Assembly: GCF_900107135.1 (NCBI RefSeq)
Contig: NZ_FNOV01000003.1
Coordinates: forward strand, 62,001-126,000
Direction of reading: 5' to 3'
DNA length: 64,000 nt
From: Hymenobacter psychrophilus
GTDB lineage: Bacteria; Bacteroidota; Bacteroidia; Cytophagales; Hymenobacteraceae
Below, piece by piece: positions 46,993 to 49,425 of the stretch. A program made the translations under genes and the position numbers. Position 1 is the stretch's first letter. The number at the start of each line of letters is the position of its first letter. The notes beneath the pieces were generated by a model. The model was not told where the DNA came from. It saw only the letters and a list, made by a program, of their open reading frames with translations, and did no database searches.

Positions 46993-47000
46993 TAACTTTG
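46993..47000 (+). promoter_or_regulatory. candidate -7 box TAACTTTG for dnaX
   Basis: TAACTTTG matches TAnnTTTG exactly, with the ATG only 12 bp further on. The transcript would therefore have a leader of only about five bases, nearly leaderless. Confidence 0.55.
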
Positions 47001-47011
47001 TGGGAAGACCT

Positions 47012-49180
47012 ATGGAGAATTTCGTTGTTTCGGCCCGCAAGTACCGCCCGGCCACGTTCAGGAGCGTGGTGGGGCAGCAGCACGTTACCACCACGCTGCA
47101 AAACGCCATTGCCTCGCAGCATCTGGCTCAGGCGTTCCTGTTCTGCGGCCCGCGGGGCGTGGGCAAAACCACCTGCGCCCGCATCTTGGCCAAAACCATC
47201 AACTGCGAGTTCGTGGAGGAACACGTGCGCCTGGGCCGGCCCATATCGGAGCTCATCCAGTCCCAGCCCGACATCGTGCCCGAGGCGCTGCTAACGGCCG
47301 CCGACCCCGACAATACGCCCTTCGATTTGGAAGCCTGCGGTAAATGCGGCTCCTGCCGCGCCTTTCAGGAAAACGCGTCCTTCAATGTGCACGAGCTGGA
47401 TGCGGCTTCCAACAACTCGGTGGAGGACATTCGCAGCCTCGTGGAGCAGGTGCGCTATGCCCCCCAGCAGGGCCGCTATAAAGTGTACATCATTGATGAG
47501 GTGCACATGCTCTCGAACGCGGCCTTCAACGCGTTTCTCAAAACGCTGGAGGAGCCGCCAAGCTACGCCATCTTCATTCTGGCCACCACCGAGCGCCACA
47601 AAATCATTCCCACCATCCTGTCGCGCTGCCAGGTATTCGACTTCAACCGGATTAAGGTGGACGACATTCGGGGGCATTTGCGCTATGTGGCTACCCAGGA
47701 GCAGATTACGGCCGAGGACGACGCCCTGCACCTGCTGGCCCAGAAGGCCGACGGCGGCCTGCGCGACGCGCTGAGCATGTTCGACCAGATGGTCACGTTT
47801 TCGGGCCAGAATCTGCGCTACCAGGATGTAATTCAGAACCTGCACATTCTGGATTATGAATACTATTTCCGGCTGACTGATGCGTTGCTGACCGAGAACC
47901 TGAGCGCCACGCTGCTGCTGCTGGAAGAGGTGATGCAGAACGGCTTCGACCTGCACAACTTCGTGGTGGGCGCGGCTGAGCACCTGCGCGGCCTGCTCGT
48001 GTGCAAGGATGCCGTAACGGTGCAGCTGCTGGAAGTGTCCGACAACATCCGGGCGCGCTACGTGCAGCAGGCCCAGGCGGCCCCGCTGGCCTTTCTGCTT
48101 TCGGGCCTTAACCTGGTCAGCCTCTGCGACCGGGAGTTCAAGCAGGCCAAAAACCAGCGCCTGCACGTCGAGCTGATGCTTATGAAGCTGGCCTATCTGA
48201 ACGGGGCCGTGCAGTTTGCCCGCGACCTGAGCGCCGGCCCGGCCGCCTCGCCTGGTAACGGCGAGGCGAAAAAAAAAAGTAGCGTAAGCCCCCAAGCTCC
48301 CTCCACAGCTGCGCCCGCAGCCCCTAGCGGCCAGTTGGTCGCCGACGGTACCGCCGAAGCGCCCGCCGCCTACGCCACGGCCCCGGCGAATCAGCCCACC
48401 CTGAGCACCAGCAACGAAGCACTAAGCACCGAAAACCTGGCCCACGGCCCCGCCGACCCGCAGCCCATCGTGCCGGTGGAAAGTGGCGTGGAGGAGCTGC
48501 ACGACACGCCCAGCATCGAGGACGAAACGGCCACCCAGGTGCCCACCACCAGCCAGCTACGCGATACGGTACCGCACATTGAAACCGGCCGGCCCAGCAT
48601 TGCGGGCCACGAGCCGGGCCAGACGCCCGTAACGGCCGCCCCGCTGCCCCCGCCCATCCCGAAACCCGGCATGCCCCCGATGGGCAAGCCCCTGGGTCTC
48701 GGCACCAAATTACCTGGCCTGGGCAGCCTGAACGCCATGAAGGCCCAACTGGCCGAGCAGGCCGCCGCCGGTAAAGCCACCACCGACGCCGAACCCAGCG
48801 GCCCCGTAACCGGCTTACCTGCCGTCGACGATGCCAAGCTGCAACGCGCCTGGAAGGAGCTGACCGAGGAGCGCAAGGCCGGCAGCATGATGCACTACAG
48901 CATCCTCAACCGCCCGGTGCAGGCCAACGAGCAGCACGTTATTCTGCTGACCGTGGATAACCCCGTGCAGGAAGACCAGTTCAACGACTTCCGGGGGGAA
49001 TTTGTGACCGAGTTGCGCCGCCGCACCGGCTACCCGCGCCTGAACGTGCAGGTAAGCATTGTAGAGCGCCAGGAAACCGGCCGCAAGCTCTATACTGCCA
49101 CCGACAAGCTGGAATACCTGACCGAGAAGTATCCCATGCTGGCCGAGATGAAGCAGCGCCTGGGACTCGACGCCGACTAG
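47012..49180 (+). CDS. dnaX: DNA polymerase III subunits tau and gamma
   Basis: The 722-residue protein has Walker A GPRGVGKT (46-53), Walker B IIDEVHML, the SRC motif in LSRCQVFDF and the zinc module C65 ... C109-x2-C112-x2-C115. Between C65 and C109 is about 35 residues more than in E. coli. After the clamp-loader domain III (to about 370) is a Pro/Ala-rich linker, then a C-terminal tau domain. At codons 420-423 a run of ten A (48269-48278) is followed in the -1 frame by AAG TAG and in the +1 frame by GTA GCG TAA. Slippage would give a gamma-like protein of about 423 residues. Start ATG at 47012. Confidence 0.95.
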   Translation: MENFVVSARKYRPATFRSVVGQQHVTTTLQNAIASQHLAQAFLFCGPRGVGKTTCARILAKTINCEFVEEHVRLGRPISELIQSQPDIVPEALLTAADPDNTPFDLEACGKCGSCRAFQENASFNVHELDAASNNSVEDIRSLVEQVRYAPQQGRYKVYIIDEVHMLSNAAFNAFLKTLEEPPSYAIFILATTERHKIIPTILSRCQVFDFNRIKVDDIRGHLRYVATQEQITAEDDALHLLAQKADGGLRDALSMFDQMVTFSGQNLRYQDVIQNLHILDYEYYFRLTDALLTENLSATLLLLEEVMQNGFDLHNFVVGAAEHLRGLLVCKDAVTVQLLEVSDNIRARYVQQAQAAPLAFLLSGLNLVSLCDREFKQAKNQRLHVELMLMKLAYLNGAVQFARDLSAGPAASPGNGEAKKKSSVSPQAPSTAAPAAPSGQLVADGTAEAPAAYATAPANQPTLSTSNEALSTENLAHGPADPQPIVPVESGVEELHDTPSIEDETATQVPTTSQLRDTVPHIETGRPSIAGHEPGQTPVTAAPLPPPIPKPGMPPMGKPLGLGTKLPGLGSLNAMKAQLAEQAAAGKATTDAEPSGPVTGLPAVDDAKLQRAWKELTEERKAGSMMHYSILNRPVQANEQHVILLTVDNPVQEDQFNDFRGEFVTELRRRTGYPRLNVQVSIVERQETGRKLYTATDKLEYLTEKYPMLAEMKQRLGLDAD
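48269..48278 (+). promoter_or_regulatory. A10 slippery tract in dnaX with nearby out-of-frame stops
   Basis: Ten consecutive A bases span codons 420-423. The -1 frame meets TAG at once and the +1 frame meets TAA two codons later. The position, just after the clamp-loader core, corresponds to the gamma end in E. coli. This fits programmed ribosomal or transcriptional slippage. Confidence 0.6.
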
Positions 49181-49186
49181 GCCACG

Positions 49187-49346
49187 AATTGGCGCAGATT
49201 TTAACGGATGGCGCGGATTTCGTAGCCGATTACAAAGGCCACCTGCATAGAGGTGGCTTTTTCGGTTCAAGCAAATGGGCGGCCGCTAGCTACTACACGG
49301 CGGGCCGTTCACGTAATCCGTGCAATCCGTTAAAATCCGCGCTAAT
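49187..49346. repeat. imperfect palindrome (GGATTTTAACGGATT type) around the dnaX terminator
   Basis: CGCAGATTTTAACGGATGGCG near 49193 pairs with the AATCCGTTAAAATCCGCG segment near 49325. This GCGGATTTTAACGGATT sequence is a common dispersed element in Bacteroidota genomes. A separate terminator stem lies inside. Confidence 0.7.
49236..49264 (+). terminator. terminator after dnaX
   Basis: GCCACCT pairs with AGGTGGC around a short loop, followed by TTTTT, 58 bp after the dnaX stop. Confidence 0.75.
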
Positions 49347-49425
49347 CCATGATCCTATAAGCAATTTTCCGCACTTGAAAGGCTGAACGGGTATCGACGG
49401 GCTTTTTATTCCCAGGGGGGACGCC

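What the first reader, a model, noticed from the sequence alone, without database searches (positions are those of the whole stretch)
48269..48278. dnaX A10 tract positioned to make gamma by slippage
The run of ten A lies at codons 420-423, just after the clamp-loader domains. The -1 frame gives AAG TAG and the +1 frame GTA GCG TAA, so a shift either way ends the protein within three codons. E. coli makes gamma by -1 ribosomal slippage at A AAA AAG, and Thermus by transcriptional slippage on an A run. The same outcome appears to have been kept here with a longer tract that allows both mechanisms.
Basis: partly seen in the sequence, partly recalled or inferred. Interest (0 to 1): 0.7.

Follow-up and report, generated by a model that had tools for sequence, protein, structure and literature searches.

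The report
dnaX poly-A slippage site with hairpin
A run of ten A's in a DNA-replication gene of a Hymenobacter-like bacterium, preceded by a small RNA hairpin, is kept across its genus and recurs in much of its phylum, and most likely makes RNA polymerase stutter so that one gene yields both a long and a short clamp-loader protein.

Summary
In detail: A10 at 48269-48278, codons 420-423 of a 722-codon dnaX, with stops just after it in both other frames. It is conserved: of 118 readable same-genus genes, 106 have A10 in frame, 4 have A11 in frame, and 8 have A8, A9 or A11 that puts tau out of frame at the tract. Over 330 tract-bearing dnaX genes, 257 are exactly A10; 88 have tau out of frame, 79 in the -1 and 9 in the +1 frame. 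The run starts in all three codon phases. So the tract is kept, not the frame, which fits RNA-polymerase slippage better than E. coli-type ribosomal frameshifting: A_AAA_AAG is not in frame here, and no downstream stem-loop signal was found.

New: a GC-rich hairpin (48244-48268) abuts the tract. Such hairpins are stronger than synonymous recoding predicts in the genus (z -10.9) and in family f6 (z -16), but not in family f5. Known relatives: Thermus dnaX, and IS1447 (A9 after a stem-loop). Nothing was measured; slippage, its level and the hairpin's role are inferred. Two-ORF dnaX genes with A10 were already in print (PMC3711429).

The parts
47012..49180 (+). dnaX; full reading gives tau, 722 aa (stop codon included in the coordinates). 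An upstream in-frame GTG at 47000 is also possible
   Evidence: NCBIfam PRK14971 and TIGR02397; Pfam domain III to residue 397
48269..48278 (+). A10 slippage tract, codons 420-423
   Evidence: conservation
48244..48268 (+). hairpin abutting the tract: 9-bp stem, arms 48244-48252 and 48260-48268, 7-nt loop 48253-48259 in which the model adds one more pair
   Evidence: folded 48240-48268: -18.5 kcal/mol, 3 of 200 shuffles as good; in a 64-nt stretch 16 of 200 as good; genus and family tests
48280..48282 (+). TAG that ends the -1 reading (mRNA with 11 A's, or 8); gamma of 423 (or 422) aa
   Evidence: a -1 stop within 4 nt in 110 of 110 in-frame genus genes
48285..48287 (+). TAA that ends the +1 reading (mRNA with 9 or 12 A's); gamma of 424 or 425 aa
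   Evidence: a +1 stop within 12 nt in 99 of 110 and within 27 nt in 110 of 110
48279..49177 (+). tau-only part: linker and C-terminal region
   Evidence: the same region stays under purifying selection in relatives where it is out of frame

Best explanation
The site is a programmed transcriptional-slippage element. As RNA polymerase copies the ten A's, its 9-10 bp RNA-DNA hybrid becomes all rA:dT. The hairpin just behind it can then form in the nascent RNA, melt the back of the hybrid and let the transcript slip, giving mRNAs with more or fewer A's. mRNAs with 10 or 13 A's are translated to tau (722 or 723 aa); the others meet a stop within about three codons and give gamma (422-425 aa). Shown by sequence: the tract, the two stops, the hairpin, their conservation, and relatives that tolerate tau in either wrong frame. 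Inferred: that slippage happens at all, that it is transcriptional, that the hairpin stimulates it, and that gamma is useful.
For: Exact length is kept while codon phase and tau frame drift: 257 of 330 tract-bearing genes are A10; phases 0, 1, 2 in 18, 69, 51 of 138; 88 of 330 have tau out of frame, in both directions. In the genus the 8 shifted genes need 8 changes on the tree, 7 forced by well-supported branches. Tau-only ORFs of shifted genes have dN/dS 0.01-0.12 in 7 of 8 genus comparisons. Family f5 is reversed in 29 of 30 genomes. Abutting hairpin: genus -10.59 against a synonymous null of -7.00 (z -10.9), f6 -6.29 against -1.80 (z -16.0), the rest -2.95 against -1.50 (z -7.8); position peak at the tract edge; covariation in f6. 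Precedents: Thermus dnaX (PMC1088944, PMC5009743 passages); IS1447, A9 after a stem-loop, slips both ways at about 16% each (PMC6211511 passages).
Against: No RNA or protein was measured. Family f5 is almost wholly reversed yet has no hairpin signal (-1.59 against null -1.91), and most other tract-bearing genes outside the genus and f6 lack a strong one (24% at -6 or better), so the hairpin is not required. Reversed genes mostly need -1 (79 of 88), which ribosomes can supply, and 25 of 44 rev-1 genes in one set hold A_AAA_AAG in frame. Outermost-pair covariation in the genus is unclear and arm swaps cost little. A fixed-structure synonymous test in f6 is only modestly above its null. Shifted genus genes sit at single tips and some may be sequencing errors; G092 (A8) has another frame break and dN/dS 0.41. 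22 of 100 phylum-sample loci have no run of 8 or more.
Confidence: 0.7

Rival explanations
1. Ribosomal -1 frameshifting within the A run makes gamma, as in E. coli dnaX; polymerase slippage is minor or absent.
For: A_AAA_AAA is present in any phase of A10; 42 of 138 other genes have A_AAA_AAG in frame, 25 of the 44 rev-1 genes among them; 79 of 88 reversed genes need -1.
Against: The window gene lacks in-frame A_AAA_AAG; no downstream stem-loop signal; GAGG ends 4 nt before the in-frame heptamer, against 8-11 nt for a stimulating SD (PMC6321510); an upstream hairpin attenuates -1 shifting in a 70S system; 9 genes need +1.
Confidence: 0.14
2. Both mechanisms act at the same run, with the share differing between lineages.
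For: Any A10 offers both; in-frame A_AAA_AAG in some lineages.
Against: In the window gene the ribosomal signals are missing and the hairpin placement should work against -1 shifting.
Confidence: 0.1
3. The run is a DNA-level contingency (phase-variable) tract that switches tau off in some cells.
For: Length differs between species (A8-A11 in the genus) and flips recur at tips of the tree.
Against: Family f5 stays reversed in 29 of 30 genomes; tau-only ORFs are selected in shifted genes; switching off an essential replication function would be costly (general knowledge).
Confidence: 0.04
4. A lysine-rich linker or assembly error without function.
For: One A10 per 64-kb window is not rare; G092, G060 and G118 show further frame breaks elsewhere in dnaX.
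Against: A10 in 106 of 118 genus genes although AAG exceeds AAA elsewhere in the analysed stretch (1168 against 585); phase changes between families; both off-frame stops kept.
Confidence: 0.02

Closest known systems
Thermus thermophilus dnaX (transcriptional slippage on a run of nine)
   Same: Same gene; tau in one ORF; A run of 9 or more; stops close behind in both other frames (PMC1088944 and PMC5009743 passages)
   Different: A10 rather than nine; an abutting upstream hairpin; relatives with tau in either wrong frame. Whether Thermus has such a hairpin was not tested here
Two-ORF dnaX genes of the GeneTack survey (PMC3711429, section 23)
   Same: A10 in nine of 17 genes; tau reached only by a shift; transcriptional slippage proposed
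   Different: The window gene has tau in frame; the survey describes -1 cases only, here 9 genes need +1; no hairpin is described in the section read. Its supplement naming the nine species was not readable here
IS1447 (A9 after a stem-loop) and Roseiflexus IS630 (hairpin 5' of T5C5)
   Same: Stem-loop directly upstream of a slippage run, transcriptional slippage measured (PMC6211511 passages; PMC5009743 section 43)
   Different: Those are insertion-sequence transposases; here an essential cellular gene, with the short product made by slippage
Escherichia coli dnaX (-1 ribosomal frameshifting at A_AAA_AAG)
   Same: Same gene and the same two kinds of product
   Different: No in-frame A_AAA_AAG, no downstream stem-loop signal, no SD-like element at 8-11 nt in the window gene

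Membership tests
Thermus-type slippage dnaX | tau encoded in one ORF that crosses an A run of at least 9 | tested here: met
Thermus-type slippage dnaX | stops close behind the run in both other frames | tested here: met
   kept in the genus
Thermus-type slippage dnaX | mRNAs of mixed A-run length | not testable with these tools
   no RNA data
E. coli-type ribosomal -1 frameshift dnaX | A_AAA_AAG in the zero frame | tested here: not met
   the base after the run is codon position 2
E. coli-type ribosomal -1 frameshift dnaX | stem-loop downstream of the site | tested here: not met
   40 of 106 A10 genus genes sampled: mean z -0.32 to -0.33 for windows 5 and 20 nt downstream, other downstream positions -0.27 to +0.23; window z -1.36 and -0.73. 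A weak structure cannot be excluded
E. coli-type ribosomal -1 frameshift dnaX | SD-like element 8-11 nt upstream of the slippery site | tested here: not met
   GAGG at 48263-48266 ends 4 nt before the in-frame heptamer 48271-48277
Hairpin-assisted transcriptional slippage (IS630, IS1447) | stem-loop directly 5' of the slippage run | tested here: met
   window; genus and f6
Hairpin-assisted transcriptional slippage (IS630, IS1447) | slippage depends on the stem-loop | not testable with these tools
   needs in vitro transcription or a reporter
Two-ORF dnaX (GeneTack) | zero-frame stop just after the run, tau in another frame | tested here: not met
   window gene is one ORF; met in 88 of 330 relatives

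The most novel reading that the evidence does not exclude
Several lineages of the phylum, this genus among them, use a dedicated slippage hairpin: a terminator-like nascent-RNA hairpin abutting an A tract of about the hybrid's own length, which makes RNA polymerase slip instead of stop. As every slipped length gives tau or gamma, the downstream frame is free to drift, and the tau:gamma ratio of the replisome is set by RNA polymerase rather than the ribosome, in an essential chromosomal gene.
Probability: 0.55. Interest if true: 0.75.

Novelty: new variant of a known kind. Interest (0 to 1): 0.62.

Why it matters
If right, clamp-loader composition in much of a phylum is set by polymerase stuttering, in some lineages with a nascent-RNA hairpin that I found described only for mobile elements (in the papers seen). 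Lineages with tau in the wrong frame should be unable to make tau without slippage or frameshifting, so both the need for it and the hairpin's role become directly testable. It also means that many 'frameshifted' dnaX genes in these genomes are probably neither pseudogenes nor errors.

Tried and rejected
Downstream RNA structure: no signal in 40 sampled genus genes. Outermost stem pair in the genus: unclear; base -1 with its partner gave G-C 13, G-G 18, G-A 8, T-A 18, T-G 10, T-T 7, T-C 3 among the 77 of 116 genes with a scorable stem. Arm swaps: own arms -11.32, foreign 3' arms -10.53 kcal/mol, a small difference. Fixed-structure synonymous test in f6: 0.759 of cells paired, null mean 0.713, highest of 500 nulls 0.764, so only modest because the peptide itself is conserved; the energy test is stronger. 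Direction of shift against hairpin: 7 of 9 rev+1 genes have one at -6 or better, 20 of 79 rev-1, Fisher p 0.003, but rows are related and G092 is doubtful, so only a lead. The first tau-frame caller sometimes picked a neighbouring gene and was replaced. The dN/dS script stopped midway and the genus part was rerun. Stop-readthrough motif of three loci: 2 one-mismatch hits in 395 class genomes, neither in dnaX.

Rows dropped: G095 and G099 (no readable dnaX's list); L001, L193, L194, L002-L004, L192, L310 and L315 as duplicates or not dnaX, and rows without a run of 8 or without a callable tau frame.

Full report
OBSERVATION. The window holds dnaX at 47012-49180 (+), 722 codons from ATG, matched by NCBIfam PRK14971 and TIGR02397 above their cut-offs; Pfam domain III ends at residue 397. 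Ten A's fill 48269-48278, codons 420-423, as reported. The -1 reading ends at TAG 48280-48282, the +1 reading at TAA 48285-48287. The genome has 4.76 Mb in 45 contigs; the most similar named records are Hymenobacter, so the host is taken to be Hymenobacter-like (inference).

MORE THAN CHANCE? One A10 per window is not rare: 12 of 100 shuffles had one. But the whole genome has two A10 and no T10. Over 120 genus genomes the median is 2 matches, overlapping ones counted (summed); the three genomes with none, G061, G074 and G092, are ones whose dnaX run is A9, A9 and A8. Of the 120 genomes, 118 gave a readable tract: 106 A10 in frame, 4 A11 in frame, 8 with tau out of frame at the tract (4 A11, 3 A9, 1 A8). 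One of the 106, G093, has its A10 141 nt past the aligned core, against 0-57 nt in the others. In the 110 in-frame genes the -1 stop is within 4 nt in 110, the +1 stop within 12 nt in 99 and within 27 nt in 110. Control codons of the same genes have both within 12 nt in 1.65% of 19,800 cases; synonymous recoding gives 5.0%. Lysine codons elsewhere in the analysed stretch (about codon 380 to the end) are AAA 585, AAG 1168.

SPREAD AND FRAME FREEDOM. An even draw from the phylum (148 genomes) was read at 100 loci, chosen mostly one per genus: 78 have an A9-A11 run near the end of the clamp-loader core, 22 have none of 8 or more. With named loci L005-L081 (77), 138 tract-bearing genes with a callable tau frame gave A9 36, A10 92, A11 9, A12 1; the run starts in codon phase 0, 1, 2 in 18, 69, 51. 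Over all sets without the known duplicates, 330 genes: A8 1, A9 39, A10 257, A11 31, A12 1, A13 1; 242 direct, 79 with tau in the -1 frame, 9 in the +1 frame. Family f5 is reversed in 29 of 30 genomes (29 genera), family f6 in 14 of 60 loci. On the genus tree the 8 shifted genes need 8 changes, 7 forced by well-supported branches: the frame has flipped repeatedly, each time at the tract. Single cases may be errors: G092 has a further frame break, as have G060 and G118. The tau-only ORF of shifted genes is selected: dN/dS 0.01-0.12 in 7 of 8 genus comparisons, 0.41 in the eighth (G092). In f6, six of the eight closest reversed pairs are unsaturated, at 0.05-0.18. In f5, four of the eight closest are, at 0.09-0.19.

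THE HAIRPIN. A 9-bp stem with a 7-nt loop ends at the base before the tract (48244-48268): -18.5 kcal/mol, 3 of 200 shuffles as good; in a 64-nt stretch the whole fold is less special, 16 of 200. In 118 genus genes, stems ending 0-2 nt before the run reach -6 kcal/mol in 58-78%, stems ending 3-18 nt before it in 3-34%. Against synonymous recoding: genus -10.59 against -7.00 (z -10.9, 114 distinct), f6 -6.29 against -1.80 (z -16.0, 55 distinct), other phylum and named loci -2.95 against -1.50 (z -7.8, 124), f5 -1.59 against -1.91 (no signal, 30). At -6 or better: 88%, 71%, 24%, 10%. Rows are related, so z is a measure, not a probability. In f6 the commonest stem is CTCTATCA-loop-TGATGGAG before A10. 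I aligned 44 distinct stretches out of 62 f6 loci: 76.4% of cells pair, 18 cells change on both sides and the covariation score is 0.264 (0 of 500 shuffles as high for each; slid controls 0.055-0.160); 5 of 8 pairs have a change on both sides, which 26 of 500 shuffles reach. Contrary or weak: told under Tried and rejected.

MECHANISM. A tract kept in length while codon phase and tau frame drift points to a step that does not read codons. RNA polymerase's hybrid is 9-10 bp (PMC5009743 section 43), close to A10. A stem-loop right behind the hybrid is the enabling element for slippage in a Roseiflexus IS (same section); IS1447 has A9 after a stem-loop and slips both ways at about 16% each (PMC6211511 passages including abstract). 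Ribosomal -1 shifting fits the window gene less well: A_AAA_AAG is not in frame, A_AAA_AAA is much weaker in E. coli (PMC5009743 passage), no downstream stimulator signal was seen, and an upstream hairpin attenuates -1 shifting in a 70S system (PMC6321510 passages). It remains possible elsewhere: A_AAA_AAG is in frame in 42 of 138 genes and in 25 of 44 rev-1 genes, and 79 of 88 reversed genes need -1.

WHAT IS KNOWN. T. thermophilus dnaX is the type case (PMC1088944 passages; PMC5009743). PMC3711429 (section 23 read) reported 17 two-ORF dnaX genes, nine with A10, and proposed transcriptional slippage; its supplement was not readable here, so its nine species are unknown to me. Blochmannia dnaX has a poly-A frameshift proposed to be corrected by slippage (PMC3017870 passages). 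Searches for dnaX with slippage, Bacteroidetes, Flavobacterium or hairpin, and for slippage with Bacteroid or nascent RNA, showed no paper that, from the listings and passages seen, describes the hairpin or the phylum-wide A10 in single-ORF dnaX; most subscription journals are not held. Larsen 2000 and Penno 2015 were not held and are known here through the review alone.

VERDICT. Observation confirmed; interpretation partly supported; a new variant of a known kind. That slippage occurs in this organism is inferred from sequence, not shown.

Noticed in passing
L050, L063, L072 (dnaX just after domain III): Three Bacteroidales-type loci without the A run have an in-frame TAG there, after which the tau part continues in the same frame; a shared stretch CATAGATTGC[A/T]AGG surrounds it. 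It looks like stop-codon readthrough in place of slippage. Searched in 395 class genomes: 2 one-mismatch hits, neither in dnaX.
   Followed up: partly
L045 (dnaX just after domain III): tau lies in the +1 frame although there is no A run.
   Followed up: no
window 49183-49351: Imperfect inverted repeat (41-nt arms, 83% complementary) just downstream of dnaX, member of a dispersed repeat family: 24 matches in this genome, itself included.
   Followed up: partly
L192 1501-1510: The only other A10 of this genome lies inside a 552-aa ORF, read as KKK.
   Followed up: no
L303-L332 (family f5): 29 of 30 genomes have dnaX reversed (tau in the -1 frame) with A10, A11 or A13 and no abutting-hairpin signal: a natural contrast for testing the hairpin.
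   Followed up: partly
G060 (L182), G092 (L142), G118 (L130): dnaX has additional frame breaks away from the tract, probably assembly errors.
   Followed up: no
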